Notes under the pieces: model-generated
Seen by the model: only the letters and a program-made list of their open reading frames with translations
The model's database searches: none
What the model was told of the DNA's origin: nothing
Made by a program: the position numbers and the translations under genes
Assembly (NCBI GenBank): GCA_942159475.1
Contig: OW804095.1
Coordinates: 61,408,773 to 61,472,772, forward strand
Direction of reading: 5' to 3'
DNA from: Sthenelais limicola
Taxonomy: Eukaryota > Annelida > Polychaeta > Phyllodocida > Sigalionidae
Length of the DNA stretch: 64,000 bases
Shown: one piece after another, positions 442 through 30,029 of the stretch
Position numbering within the stretch: position 1 is the stretch's first letter
Layout: every line of letters begins with the position of its first letter

Positions 442-3336
442 CACTAACCGACCCTACGACATATAAAATATCAACTACTTGTAACTATATGTCAAAATAT
501 ATATCCTTTCCCCGGACAATTTACTCTGTCCTTGTGCGGGATGCGGAGCAGATTGCTCATTCATTGCATATGTAATCTATCTTATACTGACTAGAATTGG
601 TGCAATGTTGAACTATATATCTTCTTAAATTTGCCTAGGAGCATCATAGATATAATGTAACATCTTAATTCTTAATTGTGACTTTTTTGGTGTATGTACA
701 CTATGGAGGAGAGAGCTATAGCGTCTGACAGACGAACCTCATGCTATGTGGCTTATACGCTTATTTATCCTTAATTATCCTATCGCATATCCCATTAATG
801 AAATCGCAGATACAATTGAACCAACTCATTTAAGTCTAATGTCAAGGCGAAAATGGGTCGCCCCGATGAATGCACAATATATTCTGTGCTTATGTCAGCA
901 CCATGCATACTCCCGACTCCCGCATGTCCATACATTTGCTGTCATGTGTCCGAATTTGCTGTCATGTGACCTGACTACACAAAGCAATTACCCGTCAATC
1001 ACCCAGATAATTGACCACCAAAATGTCATTCAAAATCACTTAAAATTGAGAATATTGACCTCATTTATCAACAGAAAAATGGATAATTTGTCTTCTTGCA
1101 AAACTATATGAATATCAAACGTAGGAACAAGGGTGCATGTGCATTCTATTTTTCCGCTGCAATGTCGTCAACATTGTACAGGAGCAGCACCCAGTTGTGA
1201 CTCGCTCTTTAGATATATATATATATATGTTATTTATATATGTCAAGTTGATCGAAAATTAGTCATCTTCAGAAATTTGTTCAGTCCTATTTTGTTGAAC
1301 GTCCTAGCGAAAATAAAAGTTTGGGCAAGTGTCATATTAGTGCCTTCCAGATTAACATACATGTTGAAGCTATATAGCTACGATTGATTGTCACGCCCAG
1401 TCGGTAGAATAAGTTAACTACACGTCTACACCAACTTAGCGGTGAAGGCTCAGCGGCTTGCCCATCTAAGTTGAAGTTAACGTTCTACTCTATCATAAGG
1501 ATGGGCTGACGCAATAGCCTCTTTTGCAACTAATTAAGTTAACCTATATACGCATCGAGCGCCCCTGCCACTCACTAATTTTAGTGACCTAGTTTCAAAG
1601 GACACTCTTAAGTATATGCCCTAATTTGTGCTTCAACCATTTCAGTTATAGGCTCGATGAGTATTAATTTAACATATTTAGCCAAGTCATACATGGGACT
1701 CCAGTCGGACATTTCCTGCGCTATATATATGTGGCATTTGTTTTGCTCAACGTAGCATACTCTCATATGAACTTCAACGTACACACAACTATATGTAATG
1801 GCGATGGATGCCAGTGTATTGAGGGTTTAGAATATTATCTAATTTGTTTGAGAGACAATTATAGGAAACAAATTTGCCAATTAGATGAATACCAAGTATT
1901 ACCATGTTTCTAAAGACCATGGCTAGCTAGGCCATTATAGTTGCAGCACATACATCGCCGCTCTCTGACGTATGTAAGATAAGAAATTACAGCGGGCATG
2001 ATGGGATGACAATGTTATCTTAATAACACTATAATACTTTCAGCGGGCTCCCATAACTAGTATGACAGGCTATATATATTATACAAGGGGCGGATCCAAC
2101 ATTTTCAAAAGGAGGGGGGCGCGCTTTCAACTTTTATTTTAAAGAACACAGTTATATATTCTATTCTAATTATGCAATGCTTTAAATATTTAGAGACAGG
2201 GATGGAATTAGGCCCCAGCAGCCGGCGATTTTCGCTGGCTAGAATCGCCCTAATCGCCCGCCATAATAGCCACAAATATCAATGTATGAATAGCCAGAAA
2301 CATAGACTGACACATATATCATTTCCCTCTCAATTTTGGTTTCATTCCTTGTCATTACGAACCGTTAGAAACTCGTTAGGATCGTTAGCAAACTATGTTC
2401 GAATTTTGTTCTGCAATTATGTTTTGAACATGTATACAATATGCTATATAATTCTATAGTCTAGAAACACTTTGATTAAGTGAGCCAGATCAGTTGGGCC
2501 CCTGAATGAGTAACTCCTTACGAACAAAGAACATCTTGTCATTCATTTGTTCTGGGTACCTCTCCTAATAGACCCTTTCTTAACTATAACTTTGCGGGTC
2601 CCTCAGTGTATGATATGAAAGGGGCGTGTCTGGGGAAATGGTATAATAAGAAAGTGAGAATGTTAGAACTCTTGGAAGCTATTCTATCTACGATATGTAT
2701 ATCCTGTTGTTATACTATGCGATAGGACAGTTGTCAGGCTTGATACAGGCCAACTAAAGTCATTGTGCCCATAGGACAACATCGAGGCGCACTGACCGAA
2801 AACTTCCTAAAATGTGTTCTAACTTCCAAAAAATAATTTTTGTATCAGCCTCTAATGATACTTCTAGCATAGAATTGTATCCATCCCTATGTACCCGCCT
2901 ATGTGATGTCAACAGGGAGCAATTTTACAACAGTGCCTGACATGTGTTTGTGTTTAGATTGGCCCATGTCAACAAATGAACTTGCTTGTGTTTTTGTTTT
3001 TGTTTTGATACATTCATACATTCACTCGTACAGTTAGCCTATAAGTGTAATTGGTATGTATACGGTATCTGATAGTCATAATCATCAGTTGTTATGATAT
3101 GATTTGGAATGTAGTTATTGATATACATCATATGCACCCTCCAAGGGAACATAATGGCACTGACCACCACTACAGTGACTTGTGACCAGCCAGTGTCTGT
3201 GTAGACTTGCCACTATCATACCTTACATGCATAGATACATGTATAGATACATCTATAGATACATACAGGTACACACGTCTGGACACAAGTAGAGTATATG
3301 TTTGTGATCTATATATAAATACATAGATATATGTAT
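442..3336. other. AT-rich non-coding stretch
   Basis: I see no supportable gene here. Short open frames on both strands lack recognisable domains. The sequence is rich in TATA/ATAT runs. Around 680-860 there is weak similarity, in the same orientation, to 21660-21830 (shared phrases near a GTACAC.ATGGAG start and a CATATCCCA.TAATGAAATCG stretch), suggesting a diverged dispersed repeat. Confidence 0.5.
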
Positions 3337-3490
3337 ACATGTATACATTCAATTCAACATATTCTTTATGTGTACCTGGTGTACCTAAAGGGGATATGCA
3401 AACAGGAAACTCATATCAAATGGCACACAGAGAAGAAGAAAATAATTAAGAAACCCAGGCACAAGGCACTCCTACTAGGAAGAGAGGAGA
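3337..3490 (+). repeat. Diverged direct repeat, left copy flanking the LTR element
   Basis: This stretch is about 75-80% similar by eye to 20694-20850 in the same orientation. Shared anchors are TTATGTGTACCTGGT, AGGAAACTCATATCAA and CTACTAGGAA. One copy lies about 115 bp outside the left LTR and the other about 50 bp outside the right LTR. It is not part of the LTR. Confidence 0.65.
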
Positions 3491-3684
3491 GTGGAGGGGA
3501 CACATACACTATAGTGGAGTGATGGAGCGGTGGAGGGTCAGCCAGCGGTAGGACAGTGCCCGTGTCTATGTATGTCAATGTCAATGTATGTCTATGTATG
3601 TCAACGTTGATTCTAGTTGATCTCGCTAGCTTGTGTAGTAATAACTCGAGTAAAGCATAGGTCCACGTTTGGAGAGCTATAGCT

Positions 3685-3690
3685 TTTATT
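3685..3690 (-). terminator. Poly(A) signal in the 3' LTR
   Basis: The minus strand reads AATAAA inside CCCAATAAAAGC, downstream of the TATA-like box of the same LTR. This is the expected polyadenylation signal for element transcripts. Confidence 0.55.
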
Positions 3691-3927
3691 GGGTCCAATC
3701 ACGAAACATGTCAATCAGTCAATATCTTAGGTGCCCCGGTGAACCATAGTCAGATCGCGCAGTCTAGGTAAGTCTATTCAGTAAAACTTCCAAGTCCAGT
3801 CCACTCAGTCCAATCAGTACAGTCTCTCTATGTCTTCATACTGTCAGTGTTGTCGAGCAGTAGGTCAATCGTAGTGTATTCGTTCAGTAACAGGTTGGAG
3901 TCTGAGAGTGACAGGACTTGGGGTTTA

Positions 3928-3934
3928 TTTTATA
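3928..3934 (-). promoter_or_regulatory. TATA-like box in the LTR
   Basis: The minus strand reads TATAAAA, about 240 nt upstream of an AATAAA signal in the same LTR. The same box is in the other LTR near 20450, where it would drive the whole minus-strand element. Confidence 0.5.
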
Positions 3935-4120
3935 TTATCAGAGTTTCCTCATTTTAACTGGGCATTGCAGCAATGTTCTAGAACATTCTAGCAACCCCCT
4001 GGTACCATTGCCTTAGAATTACTTAGTATGGAAGGAATAGAACGATGACTTGCATCATTCCAAAAGCGCAGAGACGAGCTCGTGAGCGACTCATCTCTGA
4101 TGCAATCTACCTTAAATCTA

Positions 4121-4936
4121 TGGAGGGGCAGGTCTGGCGCAATACCCTGACTCATGTCATCATGAGGGGGCAATGCCTCAGTACCGCGCCCTAGTGCGAT
4201 AACGGATAACAAACTGACTGACTATGGCCAAATACAATTAATACATTTAAATACTTTATTTAGGCACCTTAATTACTCAATATCATAGATCAATAAATTA
4301 ACTCATCATACCAAAACTTCTTAAATTATCTTTTGTACATTAACATCCTCCCCCGCAAGGAAGAATGGCTGTCCCAGCCACAAGCATGGAACCACTTATA
4401 AAAACGAGTTAAATATCACACCGTTGAACAAATCACATTTCTGGGAGTTCACCGCGACTCGGGTCTCCCGAATAGTAGAAAAATATAAATAATCTCTTTA
4501 AAATCACCACAACAATATAATTTCTTTTATAAAAATATATCAATAATCACAACTCTAAGTATCCGTCGAACAATCAAGTACACATTATCACATATGAACA
4601 TTCGCTTCTTTCAGAGATATATTAGATAAGAAGAGAGTCCCAACTGGTCATAAAAATATAAAATATCAAAAGTTTGATGCTGTCTTTTTCTCCTGCCTGG
4701 TGGCGTATAAATATATATAAATAGTCAAAAACATCCAAAAGTCTCTTTTTGATCGATCCGGTCCACACGTGGATCTGGTGGTGCCATCTGGCGACAAAAG
4801 TTCACAAATACTCATCCGTTTCTGTCCTGGCCGGATAACTCGGACAGGGTTCAAAGAAACTTAAAATTTTTGGAAGACGCGATAAGAATACAGTTTTTAC
4901 TTGTCTGTAGAAGGGTCTGGGGCTGGATCTCCTGCT
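4121..4936 (-). other. Non-coding 3' segment of the LTR element
   Basis: This lies between the CD20-like gene and the 3' LTR. It holds no convincing ORF. It is AT-rich with an A-rich stretch around 4480-4660. Confidence 0.5.
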
Positions 4937-5404
4937 TCAAACTTTTCCACCGGTCTTGGAAGAACGGCAGAGTTCGACTGCCGTAGTGGCGATCACCGCC
5001 GTATTCAGCAAGACGAGCACAATGGCCAGGCTGAATAACGGGGCCCACAGGGCGTATAGTTCTCTAAGGTCCAGATCGACACTTTGGTTGTGGACAATCA
5101 GGATTGCCACGAAGTTTCTTCCGTAGATCCACAGCGAGCCCACCCCGGCCACGCTCAAACTGATGGTACCTGCTACCACTGCCGCAGCCATCACGCTTCG
5201 ACCGCCAATTCTTCCAGCGTGGATCACCAGACATCCGGTCAAGGAAAACAAGAGACCAGCCCAGTATCCACAGGCCGACAAGAGGGCCATGGAGATATAT
5301 CCATGTCTCGCATCATTGGCTATTTGCCAGACCATCATTGCCTCAGCAAAAATGCAAATTGCTATGCCTGTCCCTGCAAGGCACGTCATCTTGATGGAGC
5401 ACAT
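4937..5404 (-). CDS. Four-helix membrane protein, CD20/MS4A-like, carried by the LTR element
   Basis: The 155-aa frame from ATG 5404 is intact; the same frame stays open upstream to 5512 without another ATG, so a spliced or longer N-terminus is possible (a TAG/AAG acceptor-like site is at about 5513-5515). Four hydrophobic segments lie at about residues 5-26, 34-63, 71-95 and 117-145. A short polar loop follows helix 1 and a longer one, with an N-glycosylation site (NQS), precedes helix 4. Helix 2 contains GYWAGLLFSLTGCL, which resembles the second-helix signature of MS4A/CD20 proteins (fWgg.ffi.sG.l). Those are cell-surface ion-flux or signalling tetraspans in animals. Unlike gag, pol and env, this frame has no stop or shift. 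It lies last before the 3' LTR, an accessory-gene position. The family call is by eye; another 4TM family (claudin- or TM4SF-like) is possible. Confidence 0.7.
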   Translation of the reverse strand: MCSIKMTCLAGTGIAICIFAEAMMVWQIANDARHGYISMALLSACGYWAGLLFSLTGCLVIHAGRIGGRSVMAAAVVAGTISLSVAGVGSLWIYGRNFVAILIVHNQSVDLDLRELYALWAPLFSLAIVLVLLNTAVIATTAVELCRSSKTGGKV

Positions 5405-6138: not shown

Positions 6139-7227
6139 TCACCAAGTGTTCTTTTTCTTCCATTTTGGAAGAACATCCAAGATGGGTGCTCCTAGAGGTA
6201 TGTATACTTCTAGGTGCCCTGGAGGGATCATTACTTTAGGGATGTCCTCAGGTCTACATCCCAGGGGCACTGGAGGGGGCCCATTGGGAGCAAATCTTGG
6301 GATCCCATTTAATGAACGGATCCACTCCTTTCGTACTTGCTGGTCCCGATTTAAAACTTTGCTTGTGAACGCAGCAATGCCCGAGGGCAAGGCCGTGTCG
6401 CAAAATAAACAACATGGACTGGGGACCTGGTCCCGGAGGTAACATCCCCGGTGGACCACCATCCCACAGCACGGGTACCGAGCTCCATCTTTCTCAAAAG
6501 TAGCCTTTTGTTTTTTTCGGCCTAAAGTAAATCTTAATTTTGAGTAAAAAGGTTCTCTGCACAAATGGCAAGAGTACTTTTGTCCATACACTCTGGCCAG
6601 GGCTATGCCTCTAGCCGTTCTTAACGTATTCAGAAGTGCAAAATAATCAAAACGAGTGTAGGGGCTGTCCGAGCGAGACATAGCTCTGAGCAGATCTTGT
6701 CTGGTCAGGTCACACACCCCGTCCAATGCTTTTATTATCATTAGGACTGGGCAGCCTGCCCGCCGGCCTGGAAGCCAGACCTGCTTCAGAGTCAGTGTGT
6801 CCGCCATGGTGACCAACACCTGCGTCAACATTTCCAAGTCTCACTTAGCCAATTGCCTAAAAATAGCAGGAATGTACTGCTTATTTAATACATACATTAT
6901 AAACAAAGACCAAAGGTTCCCTTCCTGCCCACTGGTCATCAGTTTTCCCAATTTTCTAATTGCTTTTTTATCGCTACTGGTTGTCATTGCCCCGATCACC
7001 CTTCTGTACATTTCAGGTGTCAGCATGTTGGGGAGGAGTCTGTATGTCCCTCCCTCTTGTCCTCTCATCGCGGCTCCTACGAAGTTCAATCTCTTCGTCA
7101 CGTTGTATGAAATTGGAACCGTGGTGAAACTTCCTATCACCCCGAACAACTTCACTATGGTGTTCGGCGCTGGCTGGTGGCGCAACCGCCATCTCATTGC
7201 TTGAATCATCTCCTTCGTCTTCGTCAT
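6139..7227 (-). pseudogene. Accessory ORF with a C-terminal RING-like zinc motif, one in-frame stop
   Basis: The frame starts at ATG 7227 and reads 128 codons to a TGA at 6841-6843. It then continues in the same frame for 233 more codons to 6139. The second part contains CHLC, then after about 30 residues CC.....H..C, then about nine residues later CC..C, a spacing like a degenerate RING or PHD finger. The basic segment between the first two cysteine pairs (GRKKQK) is typical of a long loop. The rest matches nothing I recognise. In position, between env and the 3' membrane gene, it looks like an accessory gene. RING proteins are often E3 ubiquitin ligases, but zinc binding here is only inferred. 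The single TGA could be decay or read through. Confidence 0.55.
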
Positions 7228-8256: not shown

Positions 8257-11136
8257 TTAGTTGAACGTTGCTCCGTTCGCTGGATCGGGTGCTGAATGTG
8301 TGTTTACACTGGATCGAACCTGATTAGTTCCCTCCCCAAAATCCTCCCCCACAAGGATTGGCTCGGCCCCCGAGCCACAAGCCGAAATAGGTTTGTTTGA
8401 CTCAGGGTAAGTTGATATACCTGCCGATGTCACCACGGGCTGATTACGGGTTGGGTCATAGGTTGACATAGGGGCTGCAAAGCCACCCCATATGTCCGCC
8501 AAAGTTGGATTTTTAGGGTATGTCATGTTTGGGTGTCTTCGATTAAGACAAGGGGTCAACTCTGGGCTATCTCTATATCTTTCCATTCTGGACTGTACCA
8601 CCTGTATCCAGGTGCATCTTGGTCTTAGCATTACCGCATAATACACATCTCCCGACTCAATTAATGATCTTATTCTTTTACCCTGATACAGTGGTACTAC
8701 GATCGTTTTCGCTGTTTCAACCAATATTTCTGCATTTCCTCTAGAATACTTGAATTCCCCGGGAACATCTAAGAAAACTTTGGACTTTCTACAACCGTTG
8801 GACACATGAGCAATGCGGATCCGAGGAATAGATTTGAACGTCACATGTCGAGGCAGATCGAAAATCTCCCCGATCACCAATGACTCAGAAATTCTCATGT
8901 TGCTGAATCTAAGTATCATATCGGTATTACCGCCAATCTTATCTTCCTCATCAAATGATATACATCTGTTAATCAGTTTGGTAGGCATCCAAATCATGCC
9001 TCTTCTTACCAGTTTCTTTATCTGTTTACAACCTTTCTTTCCGAATTTAAAAATAAAAATCATAACCACCAATAACATCCAAGCTACGAATAGTTTGTCC
9101 ATATGGGTTAAATTTTCTAAAATGCCCAATTCTGTTTCTGAATTCATACCGGGCGCCTGTGCGTCGCCCTCCTTTCTAAGAGTTAAATATTTGTTTATGT
9201 TAGCTACCGTGGCAGCTCTCGCTCCTGTGGCCCCTAGCACTAGCAGTGCTAGTTGCCTTACCTTCCATGACAGTCTAATGACCATCACCACGCTAAATAT
9301 TGTCAGTATAAGATTAATTAGCCGATACAGGAAGTCTGAGGACGCTGGTCTAGTGTCATACCAACCCCAACGTATTCCTGAGAAATGCGGAGCTTTCATT
9401 CTGGCGACGAGCTTCAACTCGTGCGCGAAGTCAAAGAGATTGGCTGTGTAATTCTTGCCAAATTTCTTTCTTAATTTTTCCAAATGTTGTGTTATGTTTG
9501 GAATAAATACCGTAACATGGAGTTTTGATTCAAAGGATAATTTCTCAGTTGGATTTGGAATATCAAAAGCATGTAACACCGGTAGGTTAACACTGTGGAT
9601 TACTCTAACCATTGACAAGTTAGAACACTGCCCACTCACGCCTGTAATGGAGTATGGCCCCACTTTTAGGTTGCAACCGCAAGGCAGTTCCACTGTACAT
9701 ATAGAGGTGTTATTGAGTTATGTCAGAGGTGTTATTGACATCTCAACTTGACCGAAAGGTGTAACCTGAATGTTACATAGATTCCAAACCATCGTTGCGT
9801 TGTCCCAGTACAGGGCCAAAATGCAGGATGGGGAGGAGAATAGTTTGAAAGGAATAGCGAATGGACACAATACCAATCCCTGATGGCTGCATCTAGCCAA
9901 GGTTTTGGACGAAATTTCGGCATATTCCCCTGTAAGATAGTTTATTGCTAAATAGTCTGGTAGATCCGATGTTACTGAATACCCTGTTACATTACCGTGT
10001 GCTCCTGGCAATGGAATTTGGAAAGCTTTCACCGCATAAAGATCATATGAAGCGGGTGCCGCTGCTACCGGTATGCTAAGTCGTATAAATAGATTTGATT
10101 CCAAAAATATAAATGATTTCAACATATCTTTATAGTAGACTGCCAAGTCCTTGAATACTAGATTTAAACCCTTGCTCTCCAGTGTCTCCGACATACGTTG
10201 CAAAGCTGATTCAAGTTCTTCAGGAGGTATCAAGACAGATGTAACTCGGCCTGCCTGGAGTGATTGCACCCCCATTATGAAATGGCTTAAAGCGCTATCA
10301 TACTGAGTAAGGAGACCTAGTTTAAGTTGGCGCTGAGACAGTGCCGCCTGAAAATATTGTAACCAAAGAATGTCGGAAGCTGAGTTTTCAACTCTATTTA
10401 GAATTGCTTTATATCTAACATATAAATCATTAGTAGCTTCCTCCAATTCTTTAATCTCCTCCCCCTGATCTATTGATTCCTCAGCTAGTTGCTGTACTTT
10501 ACTTGATGAAGCATTTACAAACTTCACGAAGACACGAGTATTATTGTTCATAGTATCCGATAGATAGTTAGTATGGTTGTAAAGGTCAAAAATTGCATCT
10601 CTAGCGTTGTCCACATCTTGTAATCTAGCTAGTTCCATCCCAATGGCTATGTTCCCCACTACCTTAATTGGGTCCTTGCTTGTTCTCTTTCCCCTTTTCT
10701 GATTATCTGGTAATAATTTCTGTAAGGCCCGTTCCCCTGCTTTTACCCGAAATTTCACTCTTATTAACGTTCGATCTAACTGATCGATCATTGGTTGAAG
10801 GGCATTGCACATCATACGACCAAAGGTTGGAATTCTCATCGAATGGTGTGCGTCATAATAATCTTGGCCGCTTCTGTTACTTTCGTGATCAGGACCCCCC
10901 GGGACCCAATCCCAATCTTTCATACATAAAGATGTATGGAAATGATACCGTCTAGCCTTATTTTTAGGTCTTTCTACCACAAAAGTTAAATCCACAAATT
11001 CATTTTTTCCCAGTAATATATCCCTGGTTCTCACCAGTACAACCCCAGCACCCTGTCGAATCAGGTAATTTGATGGTTTGTAGGCCAAACTGGTACAAAT
11101 GATCTTTAAAAGAGAATATACCAATACTTTTTTCAC
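8257..11136 (-). pseudogene. env: env-like fusion glycoprotein gene (errantivirus/baculovirus F type), one in-frame stop
   Basis: Two segments in one frame, 11136-9718 and 9717-8257, are separated only by a TAA at 9718-9720. The first has a hydrophobic N-terminus, a furin-like RGKR at residues 148-151 followed by a moderately hydrophobic stretch, N-glycosylation sites, helical heptads (about 210-260) and the LIPPEEL and SDLPDYLAI motifs I associate with F/gypsy Env proteins. The second starts with a Cys-rich ELPCGCNL motif, has a membrane segment at about residues 118-142, another at about 198-216, and then a tail of about 260 residues, much longer than usual. Such proteins mediate membrane fusion. 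There is no ATG: a TAG lies directly upstream at 11137-11139 and the frame opens after an AG, so the leader is probably spliced on. The TAA lies within two near-copies of a CAATAACACCTCT phrase. Confidence 0.85.
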
Positions 11137-12561: not shown

Positions 12562-13133
12562 TTAACCCATTCAAGGCGGGGGCAGATTCCACATATTTTG
12601 CCTAGCTGACGGGGCCCTTTTCCCCCTTTTTGGGCTTCAGGACGGGTGTCTAACATGAGGATTAAGGTTTAAAACCATTTTAAGAATATTTTCTTTTGAT
12701 AATATGTGTCATATGTACATCATTTAACAGATGTAAACAGTAATTGATCATATTTTTCCATAATTTCTAGAATTTGGTCTTCAATAATTAAAATAATGGG
12801 TCCCAATTGGATTCAATATGGCGACAACCTTGCTCCAAATTCACTTTCCAGCATTTATGTATGTTAGTTATGACGTCACCATTATTGTCTCCATGACAAC
12901 ATACCAATAAAAATATTTCTAATGTGTTTGTAAATATATATTTTAAATTTCAGCAAAATCCATTAATTTTTTATTAAGTTATGCCCCCTTCAATTTATAT
13001 AAAAATTGAATGCCTTGAGGCATTCACCCGCCCCCTAGGCCAACTTGCAATGAATGCCTTGAGGCATTCTCCCGCCCACTAGGCCAACTTGCAATGAATG
13101 CCTTGAGGCATTCTCCCGCCCTGAATGGGTTAA
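12562..13133 (+). mobile_element. piggyBac-like MITE with TTAA target duplications, nested in the LTR element
   Basis: TTAA lies at both outer edges (12562-12565 and 13130-13133). Inside them CCCATTCAAGGCGGG at the left pairs with CCCATTCAGGGCGGG (reverse complement of the right end). Near the right end, three copies of a roughly 35-bp unit each contain the palindrome TGCCTTGAGGCA. It is about 90% similar to 30184-30756. CCC/GGG ends plus TTAA are the hallmarks of piggyBac-class elements. No coding capacity. Confidence 0.88.
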
Positions 13134-13508
13134 AAGCTCTTAAGTCTCAAATATTCATATTTCAGGATTATTTTATCCTCTTTTGCAAACATAAGATTAT
13201 AATTAATTCCATATTACCTTAGGTAGGGATACACTCATTTTATAACTTCAAGACAACTTTCATAACTTTTCACCTTATTTCCCAAGTATTTTGCTGATTC
13301 TCATATCTTTTTCTCGCTCGCTCTTTTCTAAATTTCATTCCCTCTGGGATTCCTTATGTAATTTCATTTCCCATTTCGCTTGTTTCTAGTACTCATATCT
13401 GAGTCATTTCTCCTGAACCTGATTCTTGATCAAGATTACTCTCGATCTACTTTTACTTGAACATTGACTTGCACTTAATTTTCTAAAACCATCATAACTT
13501 CCTCTTTT
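13134..13508 (-). other. Non-coding tail downstream of pol
   Basis: No open frame of note is present between the pol stop and the MITE. The plus strand is T/C-rich. Confidence 0.45.
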
Positions 13509-16500
13509 CTATTGCGACATACTAACTTTCTCTAGGTTGTAGATGGGACTGGATGTGATCCAGCCCAAATCGATATACATATTTCTCAGCAATCTTGGAA
13601 CAGGTCTTGCTTCCAAGGTTCGATCAAGATATCTTTCTTTCGCTGCCTCATTTAGGCAAGTCTCTTCTACCCATTGCACTGACTTATCTTTGAATTTAAT
13701 TCTGAATCTTAAGCCTTGATCTTTAATTCTGACAATATCCAGAATATCAGTTATTTCATAATACTTAGGATCGCCGTTATCCTTAATTTTGGTTGCTCTA
13801 GGTATTTCATCACCCAACGCGTCATCCTCCTTATTAGGGATGTCCAGCGTTGCTTCCTCCTCGTCTGACTCCTCCTCTATTGGAGCGTCATTGGAGGGGG
13901 TTTCCACGGGTGGGTCTGGGAAATCAGCGTCTTCCAACTGCGTTGGGTCATTAAATGGTCCGGCTAGCGGATTCCACTTACAAATGTTCTGATTTCTGAC
14001 TTTCCCTACCTTGAGTCTGTCAATCATTATAGGCTTTGTCAGAATCTTTCCATCCTTTATTCTCTTAAGAATGACAGTTTTTTCTGTGACGAAACAAATT
14101 ATCAAATATGGTCCCTGGTAGATACTGTATCATTTTAACTTCTGTTTTCCTGGCTTCGGTACACGAGGCCAATAAAGATATACCACGTCCCCCATTTGTA
14201 AATCTGGGCAGAACGCTTTCTTATCGTATCTATCCTTCATAAGTTCTTGATTCTTTTCCAATATCTGCTTCGCCACTTTTTCAGCCTCCTGAGTCTGGAG
14301 AATTTCAGTGAATACTTCTCTTCTTGATCTGGGATCTTCCAAGGCATCCACCAATCTTGTTTCCATCGGTAATAGGGCTTCCCTACCGAATAAAAGAAGG
14401 AACGGACTACATCAATTCGCTTCGGCTGGGGAAATGTTGATAATGTAGTTTATCAACGATAAACATTCATCCCAATCATTCTGTTCATCTGAAACAAGAA
14501 ATCTTAACTTATCCAGGACGTTTTTGTTGCATCTCTCGACCAACCCCAAAGCTTTCGGGTTTAAAGAGGTTATGAAAGAATGCTTTATTCCTGCTCTCTG
14601 GCAGAAATCCGCAAAGGCTTCACTTCTGAAAAGTGAACCTTTATCAGATATTATTCTCTTGACCGCACCGTATTTCAGCATTACATGGTTGAAAAAGTTC
14701 TTAATCAGTGTGTCTGCCATTAAATCAGGGACTGGGATGGATATCACAAACCGACTATAATATCGCAAATATTTATGATATGCTTCATTCCCGTCTTCTG
14801 ACTGGCAAATTTTCCAACGCATCCATGTTGACGGTCTCCCAAGGGTGAGTCGCCGGATCTCGCGTGACCATTGGCGCTCGTATTGGTCTGGTCATCACAG
14901 GCATCACAAAATTCTCTAGCATCCCTATATAAAGATTTCCAAAAATACTTTCTTCTCAAAATTGGGATTAATTTACTCGGTCCCACATGAGCCATAATTT
15001 CATTCTCATGATAGAGCGATAGAAGCATAGGCACGATCTTTTTTGGTACAACTAACTGAGCTGAGTTCTGAACCCCATGTCTAGATGTCGTAGGGAATCT
15101 AAACAACAGATTTTCATACAGAAAATAGTCAGGCTCATATCGCAAAATTGCTCTGGCTTGCTCCTCATTACTTGGTAGCGAACCATCGCGTAAGTAAACC
15201 ATTATGGGACCCGTGAATGGGTCCTCTTCCTGGCTTTTTGCCAAGACAGACGCGTCCGTAGCCAAAGGCTTGAACTCGGACATCTGTATATTTTCTGGCT
15301 TCTTCTATACCAATTTCTTACACTTCTTATTAACCTTTTGCTTTGGGCAAGTTGTTATTGCATGTACTGGCAACAAGTCAGATAGTGGGGTGGGGTCTGG
15401 ATCTGAATTATACTTTATTCGTGATAGAGAATCTGGGACTTGATTCTGTTCGCCCTTAATATGGCGAATCGTGAAATCAAACCCTCTCAAGAGCATGATC
15501 CATCTTGCAAACTTCCCTTTAGGCTTGTCGTTTTTCAACAGAGAACACAGCGCTGAATGATCAGTATAAAGAATGAATTTTCTTCCTTCTAAATATACTC
15601 GAAAGTTTTTTACCGACCACACCACGGCCAGAAGTTCCTGCTCTATTGTGCTCCAATGAGATTCCACTTCAGAGAGCGTTTTGGCCGCGAATGCTACTGG
15701 TCTTTTCTTTCCTTCTTTGTCCATTTGTGACAAGGTTGCGCCAAGACCTACGGAACTTGCATCACATTCAAGAATGAACTCTTTCTCGAAGTCTGGAAAC
15801 GCTAGCATAACGTTCCCATTTATTAATGCTGATTTCAAATCCTCAAATGCCAATTCTTGCGGTTCATCCCAAATCCACGCCTGTTCTTTCTTTAGCAGCA
15901 TGGTTAGGGGTTTAGATCGTACTGCATAGTCATTTATGAACTTCCTGTAATACCCAACAATTCCTAGAAATCGCTGGATGTCCAGTCGCTTCACTGGGAC
16001 TGCTATATTTCTCAACGGGGCTATATTATCCTCATGTGGAGCTATGCCGTCCGCTGAAAGTGTGTGACCCAGAAACTTAATTTTGTCTCTACACATCACG
16101 CACTTAGAAGGCTTCAATTTAAGATTGGCTTCTCTTAACCGCAAGAAAACTTCCTCCAGGTCTTTTAGGTGTTGATCAAAATTAGTACTAAATACACAAA
16201 TATCGTCCAAATATACCAAACATGTTTTGTATTTCAATCCTGCAAGAACCATATCCATTAGTAGTTGGAAAGGTCTCGGACTGTTAGTCATACCCATGGG
16301 TAGTTTCGTGTATCTATACTTTGTACCTGAGGAGGTTATGAACGCTGTTTTATCACGATCCTCCTCACATATATCGACCTGGAAAAATCCAGACTGTAGG
16401 TCGAGGCATGAGAAAATTGTTGGAGCCTCTTGACCTATACAATCCAACACATCATCTATTCTTGGAATATTCAAAAACTGAGGTTCCGTGACGTCATTTA

Positions 16501-17685
16501 ATCCGCTAAAATCACAGACTAACCTCCATTGGCGATCACCCCCTGACATAGTTGTTCTTTTACCAGCTCGTCCATCATCTCTCTCATGATAGGAGATTGA
16601 CGGTATGGTAACTTGTGTACCACTTCATATTCAGATTTTAATTTTATCTTATGCTCTAAAACATTGGTGGAACCTAATATGCCATCTTGCCCCACGAAAA
16701 CATCACAATACTGAGTACACAGTTTGTTTAATTTGTTCTTTTGCTCTTGTGAAATAGTCGACTCTTTTATATTGACCTCTGGTGTAAAAACACTCTGTTC
16801 ACTCTCTTTTGCCTCTTCAGTTGTTTCCTGAGACGCACATACCCTAGATTTTACTTCCACAAAGCCATCTTGGGCTACCCACCCAATTTGGGTGCGTGCC
16901 TGGATGTCTAGTGGGAACATCGTATAATTCATAATTCTTACCGGTATCGCGTTCCCCTTGACACTAGCCACGCTTCTAGCAGCTATTAGGCCCTCCCCCA
17001 AGGCATCATCCTTGGCGTCGAACCATACCTCACGTCCATTGGGAAAAACATTCTCGCCCTCGATTTTACCTTTCATTATTACCTCCGTCATAGGTGGTAT
17101 TGTTATATCCTTCTGAGAACACACCATAGCAATCTGATCATCCTTTGTGGCACAACCTTCGTAACTTATTTGCAATTCATGTTCCATGAGGAAATCTCTC
17201 TCAATGATCAAGTCTAAACCAAAAAACAATTCCGGCCAAATAGTTACTTTTATGTGATATCTTTTCTGTGCCATATCAAGCTTCATTGAACATGGACCAT
17301 ACCCCTGTATCAACCTCCCATCTGCCAACACACATTTCTTTATTGGCATGACGGTCATGGGCGGCTTATCCGCGTCAAGACTATTATACATTTTTTCACT
17401 CATGACAGATATAGAGGCTCCCGTGTCTACCAATGTCGACAGTTTTGTTCCGTACATAGAAGCATCAATAGAATGCTGCTCCTTGTCGATTGGTATCGAG
17501 AAATAATCCCACGAATTATTTACATAGCAGACATCGGTTAACAAATGGGGTTGACCCTCAATTCTAATTCCCTTATTGCTAGGTTTGTTTCTAATTACTT
17601 CTGGGCTCAATATTTCCTTCCCTTTGCCTTTCTTTTGCTCTCTCCCCTCAATATGCCCCAATGAAGGGAGAGACTCTAGTTTGGG
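13509..17685 (-). pseudogene. pol: pol: protease, reverse transcriptase, RNase H, integrase, chromodomain (broken)
   Basis: Entered by -1 frameshift at 17679-17685. The aspartic protease shows DTGAS near 17413-17427. RT has CDFSGLN, a KLPMGMTNSP stretch and the catalytic YLDD at 16202-16213. RNase H shows ECDASS, EQELLAVVW and YTDHSAL. Integrase has an HHCC finger (paired His near 15020, FCDAC near 14905) and a core around 14400-14860. A chromodomain-like ILDIV...FRIKFKDKSVQWVEE lies at about 13625-13763. Damage: about 20 residues between protease and RT are missing and the frame shifts near 16519-16549; there are in-frame stops at 15305-15307 (TAG), 14412-14414 (TGA) and 14130-14132 (TGA); integrase shifts frame between about 14910 and 14820. 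The chromodomain would direct integration to particular chromatin, as in chromoviruses. Confidence 0.92.
17676..17685 (-). promoter_or_regulatory. -1 ribosomal frameshift site at the gag-pol junction
   Basis: In the gag frame the minus strand reads C CCA AAC directly followed by the TAG stop, an X XXY YYZ slippery heptamer (CCCAAAC). A slip of -1 gives CCC AAA CTA and enters exactly the frame that is open into protease; that frame is closed by a TAA just upstream (17686-17688). I did not fold a downstream pseudoknot. Confidence 0.8.
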
Positions 17686-18887
17686 TTATCCGTGACAAAA
17701 TAGGGCCCCTGATTTGTATCATTTTCCTGTGTATTCCCAGGATCATACTCAATCGCACCTACTTGTTTTCTCTGATTGGGCATACCATTTCCCCCCTGGG
17801 GTCCCTTATTCTGTCTCTGAGCATGACATTCATTCTGATAGTGACCATAGTTTTGACAATTAAAGCACTTAACTTGAGACTTGTTGTAGTTCGAAGGTCC
17901 ACCGTTCTGCTGCTGCCCATTGCCATTCCATCGCTGCTGATTGCCTCCTCTGCCTTGTCCGCTTCTGTTATGACGGCTGCCTCTGTAGCCCTGGAACTGC
18001 TGGCCATTGTTATACTGGCTCGGACCGTCCTGTGACCATTGCTGGTGGTTGTTCGGCTGAGGCCATCGGTTGTTTTGTTGAGGCCACTGGTTGTTTTGTT
18101 GAGGCCACTGTTGATATCCATTCTGTTGTGGCCCCTGTTGTTGGTTGCCCTTGTGGTAACCATTGTGTTGTTGGCCACTTTGGTAGTTGTTCTGTGACGG
18201 CGGTTGATTGTTATTATAATCCCATCTTTGAGGCTGTCTCTGATTCTGGCCCTGGTTCTGGTTCTGCCCATTATTACCGTTGTACGCCACAACTGGTGTA
18301 GGGATTGCTGCTATGGGCGTATTCTGTGCTTTGACGGCTGCCTCCATTCTAGCTATGTTCTTCTCTAAAGTCTTCTCCATCGACTTTTCCATGGCTCTCT
18401 GTACTTTTTTCAGATCTCCTGCGGTCACTGTACCTGTGGACATGCTTTCCTCTCTCTGAAGTAAATATTCCATCATCTGGTTCAGCGTGAGAGCCTGTCT
18501 GTTTATCAATATGGCCCGATATTTAGGCTTTATCATTCTGCTCTGGAACGATCGTATGAACTGCAGGATGGTTTCTCCCTCCGTCATGTTGACTTGTTTC
18601 ATCGCCCGTCTATCCATGTCTGACAAATGTTCGAATCTTGCCAAAAAGGATATCTTCAGTGCGTCCTAATTGTCATAGGGATCTGGGTTTTCCATCATTT
18701 GCAGCCATTCTCTTGCTGATCCTCCCAGATATGATGCAAAATGTGGGCAAAATGCGTTTATGTTGTTAGGATAGAGCCGTCTCGCCAATGCTGAGCAGTC
18801 TTCCAAGAATAGTCTTGGGTCCTCGCCTTCCAATTCTGAGAACTTGGGCAGGGATAACAAAGTTTGGACTCTCTCTAGATCCGCCAT
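17676..18887 (-). pseudogene. gag: gag: capsid and CCHC nucleocapsid, one in-frame stop
   Basis: The ATG at 18887 has a good context (CCCATGGCG). The first 73 codons carry the capsid-type pattern FLEDC..LARRLYP and REWLQMM. A TAG at 18666-18668 then interrupts, and the frame continues for 329 codons to 17676. The later part has a conserved capsid C-half (about 18640-18450), a helical stretch, then a region of about 130 residues almost entirely Gln, Asn, Gly and Trp with repeated QWPQQNN. One zinc knuckle, CFNCQNYGHYQNEC, fits CX2CX4HX4C at about 17826-17867. Gag packages the element RNA. The long N/Q-rich linker is unusual and prion-like in composition. The stop is a single nonsense change in an otherwise clean frame. 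Confidence 0.88.
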
Positions 18888-18899
18888 GGGTAACTCTTG

Positions 18900-19937
18900 T
18901 TAAAACCCTTGTTGTATGTTCTCGTCTTGGTCTTGCTGTTGATTATCGCCGTGCTCTTCTTGTTCTTCAACTTCGTTTTCTACCTCTCCTTCTTCTTCTT
19001 CTTCTTCTTGACTCGCACCTGAGACGTTTTCTATATCACTTTCTGTGTCAGATGACTCTTCCCCCGGGTCACTATCTTCGTGTAGAGGTTGTTGAGGGCC
19101 CTGTATAATCCCTTGTTCCACCAGTGGTATATTATTCGGCAGTGGAACGTTATCCGGTGCCTGTTCTCCTGGTTGTACTTGTTCTACGGGTCCGTCCCCG
19201 TCTTGTTGTTGTCGGGCCTCTGGAGCAGGTAGTCCGTTACGCTGATCTTCTAACGCTACTGCGTTCAGGTTATTCTCCAGCTCTCTCTGAAGACGCTGTT
19301 GTTCTCCTCTCCGTTCAGCTTCCTCACGGAACTCTGCTTCTTCTGCAAGTCTGGCAAGTTCTAAAGCTTGAGCTGTTCTCTCGTTTTGTAGTCTGAGCTG
19401 ATCTAATTGATCTAGGTCGTCCTGGTTGAGGACGTCTCTTAATTCCTGGTTTATTTTGTCTGGTAGCTCCGCGTCTGCCAGATTTGCAGCTCCCAATTCT
19501 TGGAGTGGCTCAGGCTCGTTTTCCTCTGTATCATCAACTGGTTGGATTAATACTTCGTCGTCTGTATTTAATCGATCGTCTGCTGACAAGTACTCGTCCT
19601 CTACCAGTATTTCTGTATCGTTACTATCGTCACTACTGTCCTCGTTGACCAATGTCTCGTCGTCGTCTAGGATTTCTTCCTCTAGATCTGCTTCAGGCAA
19701 TGCGCGTGCACCTTCCTGATTAATTAATTCGTTTCTCAAATGTAAATTTCCACCTGGTTCAGTTGCAACTAGCAACTCACCTTGTCTTCCTAGCTGCCCC
19801 TCTTCCTCTGCCCGTCTGGTCAATTGAGGAGGTGTTTCTGGAATGTCTGTGTCCTGATCTTTGAAACCTCCTCTGGTAGTGCAGCTAAGTCTAAAATTTG
19901 CTCTGTTCTGAGGTCTCTTATCCTGACCCTGCGCCAT
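18900..19937 (-). CDS. Acidic coiled-coil ORF preceding gag in the LTR element
   Basis: An intact 345-codon frame runs from ATG 19937 to TAA 18900-18902. Its residues are dominated by Glu, Asp and Gln. Acidic runs lie near residues 85-145 and 275-335, and a Leu/Glu/Arg-rich heptad region (about 165-230) predicts a coiled coil. It is in the same frame as gag, and gag's own ATG is only 12 nt beyond its stop. So it may be a separate upstream protein, an N-terminal gag extension cut by a nonsense codon, or translated by termination-reinitiation. No known domain was recognised. The gag ATG has the better initiation context. Confidence 0.6.
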   Translation of the reverse strand: MAQGQDKRPQNRANFRLSCTTRGGFKDQDTDIPETPPQLTRRAEEEGQLGRQGELLVATEPGGNLHLRNELINQEGARALPEADLEEEILDDDETLVNEDSSDDSNDTEILVEDEYLSADDRLNTDDEVLIQPVDDTEENEPEPLQELGAANLADAELPDKINQELRDVLNQDDLDQLDQLRLQNERTAQALELARLAEEAEFREEAERRGEQQRLQRELENNLNAVALEDQRNGLPAPEARQQQDGDGPVEQVQPGEQAPDNVPLPNNIPLVEQGIIQGPQQPLHEDSDPGEESSDTESDIENVSGASQEEEEEEGEVENEVEEQEEHGDNQQQDQDENIQQGF

Positions 19938-20124: not shown

Positions 20125-20643
20125 GTTGATTCTAGTTGATCTCGCTAGCTTGTGTAGTAATAACTCGAGTAAAGCATAGGTCCACGTTTGGAGAGCTGAA
20201 TATAGCTTTTATTGGGTCCAATCACGAAACATGTCAATCAGTCAATATCTTAGGTGCCCCGGTGAACCATAGTCAGATCGCGCAGTCTAGGTAAGTCTAT
20301 TCAGTAAAACTTCCAAGTCCAGTCCACTCAGTCCAATCAGTACAGTCTCTCTATGTCTTCATACTGTCAGTGTTGTCGAGCAGTAGGTCAATTGTAGTGT
20401 ATTCATTCAGTAACAGGTTGGAGTCTGAGAGTGACAGGACTTGGGGTTTATTTTATATTATCAGAGTTTCCTCATTTTAACTGGGCATTGCAGCAATGTT
20501 CTAGAACATTCTAGCAACCCCCTGGTACCATTGCCTTAGAATTACTTAGTATGGAAGGAATAGAACGATGACTTGCATCATTCCGGAAGCACAGAGACGA
20601 GCTCTTGAGCGACTCATCTCTGATGCAATGTACCTTAAATCTA
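20125..20643 (-). repeat. 5' LTR
   Basis: This partner of 3606-4120 has a 4-bp insertion and about seven base differences. On the minus strand it would supply the promoter (TATA-like box near 20450) for all element genes. Confidence 0.88.
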
Positions 20644-25382: not shown

Positions 25383-27704
25383 GAAGAAGAATTGCAATTG
25401 TGATGGCAGAGTGCATGGCCCATATTACGCATCACCCGCTGGGAATTCCCTAAGATTTGCCATTACTTCATCTTGGACCGCCGTGACATTGTTCTATCCC
25501 TATAAAATGTCAACGGCTATAATTCCTTCCTTGGTCAACCGGCCGGCTAGTTATAAGTAGCTTGACTGAAGACTATAGGTGCATACATAGGCTGCATGAA
25601 ATTCTGTGTCGGTAGCTCCATTCATTAATTAATGGATACAACAGGCGGTGCAGTGTGTCATCGATCACCAGTTAGCTCGATACATAACCGCTCCCTTTAC
25701 CGATGCTGCATGCGTGGCATGGTGCTAATTCCCTCACTAATTAATGACGAACAGGAACTATAGAGATATGCTTATTGCGCTAGCTAGCAGAACTCTATTT
25801 TTGCCGTTGGACGCAACATATACAAATATATGTTTGACAAACAACTTAACTGAAATGTTGGACTTTTATGGTCACAGATATCTATAGCTGTTAGTGTATG
25901 CATGGGCCAAACATAAGTTGATTAGTTCAGTTGTTACATTTCGGTACGTAAAGCCAAACAACAGATGAACACAAAGACCAATTAGCTATAGCCGGGGCAC
26001 TTCAATTGAATACAAATTGTATTAGCATCAATCAAACATAGATTAACGCATCTTATAATTTGAAAATATAGATACATTGACTTTTTACAATTAATTGTCT
26101 ACTTCATAGGAAAGTCGTATATATGAATAATTATAGATCGAGATGCAATGCAACTTTGTGACTTAGGATGTGTGGCGTGAGCACACTCCTCAGACACATA
26201 TACATGGAGACGGTTACATTGACATGGTGGGGATTGGTTTAACCAAAGACTGATAGTGATCCATGCAGTCGTCATTGTGGCGAGTATGGGCTATGTGTGC
26301 TGATTAGAGAGATATGTATGACATATATCATTACTATCATATCATTAAAGTTTGTTTTGATTCTTGCCATAATTGTTTTTTGCTGACCTATTTTGTGTTT
26401 TGGAGTCTTTGGCTCTTGTTATATGTGTTGATGTCAAAAGAGCAAGATTAAAATGAAGTTGTTCACCAGGGTTATTATGAGATATGAGGGAGGTAGATCG
26501 AGGGAGAGGTTGGTTAGAAAAGTTATATATTTGAAAAATGAATGGGTACAATATTTGGTGATGCATAGCGAGTGGGGTGAGTAAAAATATGATTTATACT
26601 GAAGACATAGTGAGGAACGTCATATGATGATGCATGCAGGGATGCAATGGTTGGGTCATTATACGATCTATATATGACATGTACTGCATGCATGGGCCAT
26701 ATGTGTCTTTGTTTACTAACATTGCATGCGCAGCCAATGTACTAATGGACATTTCATATGTGGGGCCTACATTTAATGGATAGATACAGTGCATGCCTAT
26801 ATATGATTGATTAATTGTATATTAGTGGATAATCGAAATTATATTGTGTACATTGGCCATATACAGAAAGCCAACAGCTAGGCTGCCACAGCGAGTTCAC
26901 AATTTAATTTGACCGTTAAATGGATATATATAGCGGGCATGCAAGGACACGCGGCCCGCTGCCATATCTCCTAACGCAGCCATTTCATCAATATATGAGA
27001 CCTGCCAACAATCAAAGTCACTATATCTATAGCTGCTTAATGTAACTCTAATGTCAGATATTAACGTTAAAGAGAGAAATATTGACAAATTCGATGTGCA
27101 CATTGTCAGACACAAATGGATATATATGGTGTGACTGATATCCAGTGTATGCAGCTGCATGAGCGATAGATCCAAACGATTTAATTTAGAGATATATATG
27201 TCATCCCGCGGAAGGCGGTGATGCAGTCCATCGGTACCCAGACGATAATAAGAGGGAATGAAAGTAGTTAGACTATATATATGATATTGTATACAAACAT
27301 GCACTAACTAATAAAGAATATCAGTATCTACTATATACACATTTCCTGAAAACACGTACATAAATGCATGTATGGAAATAGGATTGAGCAGGGTCAACTC
27401 ATGCAGGGTCGAAAAAGGTCAATATGCAGGGGGAGATTAAAATAAATGACGATTTTTTATTAGATCATGCAGTACGTTGATATAGTTTCCTGACTTTTCA
27501 ATTATATGGGATTTGGTGGAACGTATATGGATTATAGGTTATGTATTGGAGCAAGTATTGGTGGAATGTATATGCATTAGCTTTTGTATTGGAGCAATTA
27601 AGTATAAACGCAATTAATGCCCGACTCAATGCAACATACCAGAGGATTATTGTACTGAGAGACGCATATGCAGTGAGCACGCATGCACTCACTCGCTCTG
27701 TACG
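25383..27704. repeat. 2.3-kb tandem duplication, copy 1
   Basis: This copy begins GAAGAAGAATTGCAATTG and is repeated 2325 bp to the right with only a few base differences noticed by eye (for example ATATGGATTATAGG here against ATATGCATTATAGG in copy 2). It has no recognisable gene; the same meaningless short frames occur in both copies. Confidence 0.95.
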
Positions 27705-27707
27705 TAC

Positions 27708-30029
27708 GAAGAAGAATTGCAATTGTGATGGCAGAGTGCATGGCCCATATTACGCATCACCCGCTGGGAATTCCCTAAGATTTGCCATTACTTCATCTTG
27801 GACCGCCGTGACATTGTTCTATCCCTATAAAATGTCAACGGCTATAATTCCTTCCTTGGTCAACCGGCCGGCTAGTTATAAGTAGCTTGACTGAAGACTA
27901 TAGGTGCATACATAGGCTGCATGAAATTCTGTGTCGGTAGCTCCATTCATTAATTAATGGATACAACAGGCGGTGCAGTGTGTCATCGATCACCAGTTAG
28001 CTCGATACATAACCGCTCCCTTTACCGATGCTGCATGCGTGGCATGGTGCTAATTCCCTCACTAATTAATGACGAACAGGAACTATAGAGATATGCTTAT
28101 TGCGCTAGCTAGCAGAACTCTATTTTTGCCGTTGGACGCAACATATACAAATATATGTTTGACAAACAACTTAACTGAAATGTTGGACTTTTATGGTCAC
28201 AGATATCTATAGCTGTTAGTGTATGCATGGGCCAAACATAAGTTGATTAGTTCAGTTGTTACATTTCGGTACGTAAAGCCAAACAACAGATGAACACAAA
28301 GACCAATTAGCTATAGCCGGGGCACTTCAATTGAATACAAATTGTATTAGCATCAATCAAACATAGATTAACGCATCTTATAATTTGAAAATATAGATAC
28401 ATCGACTTTTTACAATTAATTGTCTACTTCATAGGAAAGTCGTATATATGAATAATTATAGATCGAGATGCAATGCAACTTTGTGACTTAGGATGTGTGG
28501 CGTGAGCACACTCCTCAGACACATATACATGGAGACGGTTACATTGACATGGTGGGGATTGGTTTAACCAAAGACTGATAGTGATCCATGCAGTCGTCAT
28601 TGTGGCGAGTATGGGCTATGTGTGCTGATTAGAGAGATATGTATGACATATATCATTACTATCATATCATTAAAGTTTGTTTTGATTCTTGCCATAATTG
28701 TTTTTTGCTGACCTATTTTGTGTTTTGGAGTCTTTGGCTCTTGTTATATGTGTTGATGTCAAAAGAGCAAGATTAAAATGAAGTTGTTCACCAGGGTTAT
28801 TATGAGATATGAGGGAGGTAGATCGAGGGAGAGGTTGGTTAGAAAAGTTATATATTTGAAAAATGAATGGGTACAATATTTGGTGATGCATAGCGAGTGG
28901 GGTGAGTAAAAATATGATTTATACTGAAGACATAGTGAGGAACGTCATATGATGATGCATGCAGGGATGCAATGGTTGGGTCATTATACGATCTATATAT
29001 GACATGTACTGCATGCATGGGCCATATGTGTCTTTGTTTACTAACATTGCATGCGCAGCCAATGTACTAATGGACATTTCATATGTGGGGCCTACATTTA
29101 ATGGATAGATACAGTGCATGCCTATATATGATTGATTAATTGTATATTAGTGGATAATCGAAATTATATTGTGTACATTGGCCATATACAGAAAGCCAAC
29201 AGCTAGGCTGCCACAGCGAGTTCACAATTTAATTTGACCGTTAAATGGATATATATAGCGGGCATGCAAGGACACGCGGCCCGCTGCCATATCTCCTAAC
29301 GCAGCCATTTCATCAATATATGAGACCTGCCAACAATCAAAGTCACTATATCTATAGCTGCTTAATGTAACTCTAATGTCAGATATTAACGTTAAAGAGA
29401 GAAATATTGACAAATTCGATGTGCACATTGTCAGACACAAATGGATATATATGGTGTGACTGATATCCAGTGTATGCAGCTGCATGAGCGATAGATCCAA
29501 ACGATTTAATTTAGAGATATATATGTCATCCCGCGGAAGGCGGCGATGCAGTCCATCGGTACCCAGACGATAATAAGAGGGAATGAAAGTAGTTAGACTA
29601 TATATATGATATTGTATACAAACATGCACTAACTAATAAAGAATATCAGTATCTACTATATACACATTTCCTGAAAACACGTACATAAATGCATGTATGG
29701 AAATAGGATTGAGCAGGGTCAACTCATGCAGGGTCGAAAAAGGTCAATATGCAGGGGGAGATTAAAATAAATGACGATTTTTTATTAGATCATGCAGTAC
29801 GTTGATATAGTTTCCTGACTTTTCAATTATATGGGATTTGGTGGAACGTATATGCATTATAGGTTATGTATTGGAGCAAGTATTGGTGGAATGTATATGC
29901 ATTAGCTTTTGTATTGGAGCAATTAAGTATAAACGCAATTAATGCCCGACTCAATGCAACATACCAGAGGATTATTGTACTGAGAGACGCATATGCAGTG
30001 AGCACGCATGCACTCACTCGCTCTGTACG
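27708..30029. repeat. 2.3-kb tandem duplication, copy 2
   Basis: This directly follows copy 1 after a three-base TAC junction and ends at CTCTGTACG. No terminal TG/CA or target duplication is seen, so this is a plain tandem duplication (real or an assembly artefact) and not an LTR pair. Confidence 0.95.

What the first reader, a model, noticed from the sequence alone, without database searches (positions are those of the whole stretch)
4937..5404. LTR retroelement carries an intact CD20/MS4A-like four-helix membrane gene
Between the env and RING-like genes and the 3' LTR lies a clean 155-aa frame with four membrane segments and a helix-2 signature like MS4A/CD20. This is the usual position of accessory genes. 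It has no stop although neighbouring element genes do. If the family call holds, it is a host-type membrane gene captured by a Ty3/gypsy element, perhaps modifying the cell surface during virus-like egress. Seen: frame, TM pattern, position. Known: MS4A are cell-surface tetraspans. Inferred: capture and role.
Basis: partly seen in the sequence, partly recalled or inferred. Interest (0 to 1): 0.85.

Follow-up and report, generated by a model that had tools for sequence, protein, structure and literature searches.

The report
Swappable CD20-like gene in retroelement
A virus-like jumping element in this animal genome carries a small four-helix membrane protein gene resembling the CD20 family, kept intact by selection and exchanged as a unit between otherwise near-identical copies.

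Summary
The ORF is real, but on the minus strand (5404 to 4937). It lies inside a Ty3/gypsy element (LTRs 3606-4120 and 20125-20643, Baculo_F-type env), between a RING-like gene and the 3' LTR. It is no one-copy accident: of 68 matches in the host genome, 41 are near full length, none of the 41 with an internal stop, and 37 of 41 have an env upstream. Three gene-bearing elements have identical LTR pairs. C versus C' alleles give dN/dS about 0.08. Of the env hits listed, 0 of 28 full-length ones at 31-50% identity have it, so one gain is likeliest. The CD20 resemblance is remote but specific: all 5 alleles match Pfam CD20 best, all below its cut-off (13.6-23.9 of 27.9 bits); 7 of 7 PDB matches are MS4A proteins; a reversed control gave none. 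Unexpectedly, the gene is an exchangeable cassette: B and C elements are 97-99% identical on both sides yet carry proteins 49% identical, and allele B sits on three backbones. Capture from a host is plausible, unproven. Function (a plasma-membrane organiser acting on host surface proteins) is inferred.

The parts
4937..5404 (-). CD20-like four-helix membrane protein gene, 155 aa, with stop codon (allele A)
   Evidence: Open frame; 41 near-full-length relatives in the genome without internal stop; Pfam CD20 E=0.067, 13.7 bits, below the 27.9-bit cut-off
3606..4120 (-). 3' LTR
   Evidence: Paired with 20125-20643, 97.9% identity over 519 columns; 7 mismatches of 515
20125..20643 (-). 5' LTR
6139..7227 (-). 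RING-like gene, in two frames here (7227-6841, 6837-6139); one frame of 423 aa in L066 and L068
Evidence: weak sub-threshold C1 match for the second frame; no Pfam match at E<=0.05 for 4 long copies.
8257..11136 (-). env, in two frames here (11136-9718, 9693-8257)
   Evidence: First frame matches Baculo_F PF12259, E=4.9e-7, 29.2 bits, cut-off 24.1; about 970-aa open frames in other copies
13509..17661 (-). pol region: protease-like, RT, RNase H, integrase, over several frames
   Evidence: Pfam RVT_1, RT_RNaseH, Integrase_H2C2 and rve over cut-off; protease matches below cut-off
17676..19937 (-). gag region, two frames (19937-18900, 18644-17676)
   Evidence: zinc knuckle below cut-off in the second frame; no match in the first

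Best explanation
It is a genuine accessory gene of an env-bearing Ty3/gypsy (errantivirus-like) element, encoding a minimal CD20-like four-helix membrane protein. Shown: it lies inside the LTRs; it follows nearly all full-length env hits of one env clade and none of the listed distant ones; its sequence evolves under purifying selection; gene plus a short 3' flank has been replaced as a unit between near-identical backbones. Inferred: that clade acquired it once from an animal-type CD20-like gene; it is made from a subgenomic RNA; it sits in the plasma membrane with both ends inside; and, like vertebrate MS4A proteins, it organises or redirects other surface proteins, most likely host receptors or restriction factors, during particle exit or to keep out rival elements. 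Exchange of divergent alleles on a near-constant env suggests that the partner under pressure is a host or rival protein rather than the element's own Env. My odds: accessory gene 0.97, cassette exchange 0.9, CD20 homology 0.8, stated function 0.35.
For: 41 of 41 near-full-length copies stop-free; 37 of 41 with env upstream, and gene present after 38 of 40 env hits at >=66% identity versus 0 of 28 at 31-50%; identical LTR pairs in three gene-bearing elements; dN/dS 0.08-0.17 in unsaturated comparisons C/C', A/D and B/B; Pfam CD20 top hit for 5 of 5 alleles; 7 of 7 PDB matches are CD20 or FceRI-beta with a clean reversed control; hhalign to host CD20-like gene E=7e-4 versus 0.42 reversed; cassette exchange.
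Against: All 5 alleles are below the Pfam cut-off; the best PDB E-value is 0.03; the model could not be used for a fold test and Foldseek gave no significant match; no cysteine in the third loop; a 2010 study found no clear MS4A genes in invertebrates and suspected convergence (PMC2826416, passages). Env and gene counts rest on capped lists (89 of 771 env candidates scored). No expression, location or partner data. Loss in other env clades instead of one gain is not excluded.
Confidence: 0.6

Rival explanations
1. It works as a small viral membrane protein of another sort, a viroporin or fusion helper (functional analogue of FAST or sORF2 proteins) assisting release or cell-to-cell transfer, and the CD20 resemblance is convergent.
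For: Small helical membrane proteins are known in LTR elements (sORF2, PMC11952523, passages); CD20 similarity is concentrated around helices 2 and 3; convergence was argued for invertebrate CD20-like genes.
Against: Only MS4A proteins are found in the PDB and only CD20 for all alleles in Pfam, not with the reversed control; sORF2 has one membrane segment and a myristoylation start that is absent here. The element already carries a fusion-type env.
Confidence: 0.2
2. The gene is an ordinary accessory gene and the allele exchange is a neutral by-product of template switching between co-packaged RNAs, without selection for diversity.
For: Conserved short sequences at both edges in the B, C and C' pieces compared would favour switching there; recombination between retroviral RNAs is well known (recalled).
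Against: One allele on three backbones, and three pairs (B/C, A/D, C/C') in which identity falls at this gene. No test for selection on the exchange itself was run, and the exchange was not compared with gag, pol or env across copies.
Confidence: 0.4
3. Passive passenger: a chance ORF or a host fragment carried along without function.
For: Frames this long arise in 9 of 1000 shuffles of the interval.
Against: 41 of 41 near-full-length copies open over alleles 43-80% identical; dN/dS near 0.08 for C versus C'.
Confidence: 0.02

Closest known systems
CD20-like family, Pfam PF04103 (MS4A1/CD20, MS4A2/FceRI-beta)
   Same: Four hydrophobic segments, helix-2 stretch and order of segments; the only family matched by all 5 alleles and the only PDB matches.
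   Different: All alleles below the Pfam cut-off; very short tails; no cysteine in the third loop, where CD20 has a disulfide (recalled); encoded by a retroelement.
Errantivirus-like Ty3/gypsy elements with Baculo_F env
   Same: LTRs, gag-pol order, Baculo_F env match.
   Different: A long RING-like gene and, in one clade, a CD20-like gene downstream of env.
sORF2 of Drosophila MDG1-group elements (PMC11952523, passages)
   Same: Small membrane protein encoded by a Ty3/gypsy element as an accessory gene.
   Different: sORF2 has one membrane segment and a myristoylation motif, and serves elements lacking env; this protein has four segments, starts Met-Cys and accompanies an env.
Extra ORF3s of bdelloid rotifer LTR elements (PMC5408684, abstract and passages)
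   Same: Modular 3' genes exchanged between elements.
   Different: Those are env-like, GDSL esterase, DEDDy exonuclease or short two-helix ORFs, shared between element classes; here alleles of one gene are exchanged between near-identical copies.

Membership tests
CD20-like (PF04103) | Match over Pfam's curated cut-off (27.9 bits) | tested here: not met
   13.6-23.9 bits for 5 of 5 alleles; no element copy over the cut-off in the genome search
CD20-like (PF04103) | Sequence match specific to the family | tested here: met
   Only family matching 5 of 5 alleles; 7 of 7 PDB matches; none with reversed alignment
CD20-like (PF04103) | Four membrane helices | tested here: inconclusive
   Four hydropathy segments in 4 of 5 alleles, three in D; four helices in a low-confidence model
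CD20-like (PF04103) | CD20 fold | tested here: inconclusive
   Single-sequence model pLDDT 60.8; Foldseek best E 1.2, not MS4A
CD20-like (PF04103) | Disulfide-bearing loop between helices 3 and 4 (a CD20 feature, recalled; not in every MS4A protein) | tested here: not met
   No Cys between columns 59 and 141 in any of 5 alleles
Ty3/gypsy (Metaviridae) element with env | LTR pair, RT, RNase H, integrase | tested here: met
Ty3/gypsy (Metaviridae) element with env | Baculo_F-type env | tested here: met
   29.2 bits, cut-off 24.1
Ty3/gypsy (Metaviridae) element with env | Position of its RT in a phylogeny of Ty3/gypsy lineages | not tested
   No tree of RT was built
FAST/sORF2-like fusion proteins | One membrane segment and N-myristoylation motif (per PMC11952523) | tested here: not met
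   Three or four segments; all 5 alleles start Met-Cys
Tetraspanin, claudin or TM4SF | Pfam match to those families | tested here: not met
   No such family among matches at E<=1 for 5 alleles

The most novel reading that the evidence does not exclude
A retroelement lineage keeps a pool of divergent CD20-like surface-organiser alleles and swaps them between otherwise near-identical genomes, as a variable module in conflict with host surface proteins or with sibling elements (an exclusion or self-recognition system for retroelements).
Probability: 0.3. Interest if true: 0.9.

Novelty: new variant of a known kind. Interest (0 to 1): 0.72.

Why it matters
Accessory genes of LTR elements outside vertebrate retroviruses are seldom characterised. 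A selected, exchangeable CD20-like gene gives a testable handle on how env-bearing retroelements manage the host cell surface and compete with each other. It also bears on whether CD20-type proteins exist outside jawed vertebrates: a CD20-like gene over the Pfam cut-off lies elsewhere in this genome, which looks invertebrate to me although the organism was not identified.

Tried and rejected
Chance ORF or one-copy insertion: rejected on copies and dN/dS. Recent capture from this host: not supported; the host CD20-like gene L044 aligns with the profile over 41 columns only, and a genome search with it returned 3 matches, none in the element. Intron evidence for capture through RNA: inconclusive; candidate host exons L043 and L045 have splice-like edges but L044 is one open frame. 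Relatives elsewhere: profile search of the protein collection scored 7999 candidates, none at E<=1; viral contigs, none of 51 pattern matches confirmed; animal genomes other than this one could not be searched. Structure: the single-sequence model was too weak; Foldseek top rows were designed bundles and DgkA. Remnants in env families lacking the gene: none in 13 of 19 downstream loci, best E 0.18 on the opposite strand. LTR pair of the C' copy: not found in the pieces fetched. The organism was not identified (marker search, unanswered). In one search many pairs of distant alleles have saturated dS; I quote only C/C', A/D and within-B values, though C' versus B or D pairs gave higher ratios (0.31-0.44) at dS 1.2-1.6. 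Papers: eight searches were answered and their listings showed no CD20-like or MS4A gene in a retroelement; I saw passages of PMC11952523, PMC5408684, PMC2826416, PMC12440569 and PMC11673190 and the outline with abstract of PMC5408684, no whole text.

Full report
What is there. The frame is real but on the minus strand, 5404 down to 4937. The element runs on the minus strand too: 5' LTR 20125-20643, gag, pol with RT, RNase H and integrase, env with a Baculo_F match over its cut-off, a RING-like gene, the membrane gene, and the 3' LTR 3606-4120. In this copy env and the RING-like gene are each split into two frames, while the membrane gene is open. The LTRs differ at 7 of 515 aligned sites.

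Not an accident. Searching the host genome (1.13 Gb, unnamed) with the 167-aa translation from an upstream GTG gave 68 matches. By my count 41 span at least 134 residues and none of the 41 has a stop inside. By identity and frame length they are allele A (the window, 1), D (1), B type (14) and C or C' type (25); I fetched sequence for 24 of the 41. The other 27 are partial, several with stops, among them decayed relatives such as L048, L050, L052 and L054. A same-strand env lies 1.5-8 kb upstream in 37 of 41. In the other direction, a match to the gene follows 38 of 40 full-length env hits with at least 66% identity to the window env, 1 of 6 at 55-63%, 0 of 2 at 48-50% and 0 of 26 at 31-35%. 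I listed frames in 12 downstream regions: the 8 of env-only families (L055, L057, L058, L059, L060, L062, L064, L065) show the RING-like gene, whole or split, and no membrane gene; L066, L068 and L069 (B, C, C') show the RING-like gene then the membrane gene; L070 (D) shows the membrane gene without env. A profile search of all 19 downstream regions found the gene in 6 and no remnant in 13. One gain in one clade is the simplest reading; loss elsewhere is not excluded.

Recent movement and selection. LTR pairs are identical over 698, 700 and 697 bases in three gene-bearing elements (B, C, B) and 828 bases in one without the gene; the pair of the C' copy was not found. Of 24 ORFs long enough, 21 were distinct. 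NG86 gives dN/dS near 0.08 for C versus C' (dS about 1.2-1.5), 0.16 for A versus D and 0.11-0.17 within B; other distant pairs are saturated or give 0.13-0.44.

CD20 resemblance. Pfam CD20 is the only match of the window protein (E=0.067) and the only family matched by all 5 alleles, best 4.9e-5; all five lie below the cut-off, at 13.6-23.9 of 27.9 bits, and allele B also matched CitMHS at 0.013. The 5-sequence profile against PDB sequences returned seven at E<=10, all CD20 or FceRI-beta, best E 0.032. The same alignment reversed returned none, and no CD20 in Pfam. Against a host gene that is CD20-like over the cut-off (L044, E=1.5e-9) the profile aligns over the helix-2 stretch with E 7e-4; reversed 0.42. 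The third loop has no cysteine and the fold could not be tested. I therefore call it CD20-like and do not file it as a member. Zuccolo and colleagues (PMC2826416, passages) found no clear MS4A genes in invertebrates and thought short helix matches might be convergent; that remains possible.

The exchange. The B and C elements compared (L066, L068) are 97.3% identical over 3.2 kb from the env end to just before the ATG, and 99.4% over the last 1.06 kb to the LTR end. Through the ORF they are 49-56% identical in DNA and 49% in protein. The shared right-hand sequence begins 207-208 bases past the stop in all 8 B copies and 137-138 in all 10 C copies read; in C' it was found in 3 of 4 (142-158). 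A and D show the same: 88-99% before the gene, 51-70% in windows over the ORF, 44-58% for some 370 bases beyond, then 78-97% to the LTR end. C versus C' falls from 83-97% to 72-79% at the ORF, and past it the two differ. In a tree of about 290 bases upstream of the gene from 22 copies, B alleles fall on three backbones: the main group beside C copy L014, L024 beside C copy L009 (99.6%), and L025 with C' copies L019 and L021; supports are 0.89-0.91. L024 and L009 also share a right-flank variant, and so do L025 and L028. The ORF tree groups all B copies together with full support. So gene and short 3' flank moved as a unit, more than once. Its presence in many separate copies argues against an assembly error.

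How it may work. Shown: a conserved element gene under constraint. Inferred: a membrane organiser like MS4A proteins, which I recall to modulate surface receptors. Helix 2 and the third loop are the most conserved segments, the C-tail the least. The RING-like gene is nearly identical between the B and C elements, and many B and C copies have equal env match scores, so the alleles do not seem to track Env; a host or rival partner is likelier. Neutral recombination is a serious rival and I did not test selection on the exchange.

Novelty. Listings of eight literature searches and the passages read showed extra ORFs in rotifer elements (PMC5408684) and sORF2 in Drosophila elements (PMC11952523), but no CD20-like accessory gene. 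Subscription papers and preprints are largely outside that library.

Noticed in passing
6139-7227 and loci L055-L069: A RING-like gene follows env in all 11 env-bearing downstream regions whose frames I listed (whole or split); four long copies have no Pfam match at E<=0.05. It may be an older core accessory gene of these elements.
   Followed up: partly
L049 (G000 C2:38278992-38279384): In-frame chimera of allele B (front) and allele C (back) lacking the middle of the membrane gene, a 145-aa open frame.
   Followed up: no
L044 (G000 C2:10366000-10372500), frame 2808-5009: 733-aa open frame with an N-terminal CD20-like domain over the Pfam cut-off, not part of the element.
   Followed up: partly
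26897-27304 and 29222-29629: Two nearly identical 135-aa minus-strand frames 2.3 kb apart, a duplication.
   Followed up: no
34561-37416 and 56508-58124: Frames that read like LINE-type endonuclease/reverse transcriptase ORFs, by eye only.
   Followed up: no
13007-13138: 44-base tandem repeat, about three copies, between pol and env inside the element.
   Followed up: no
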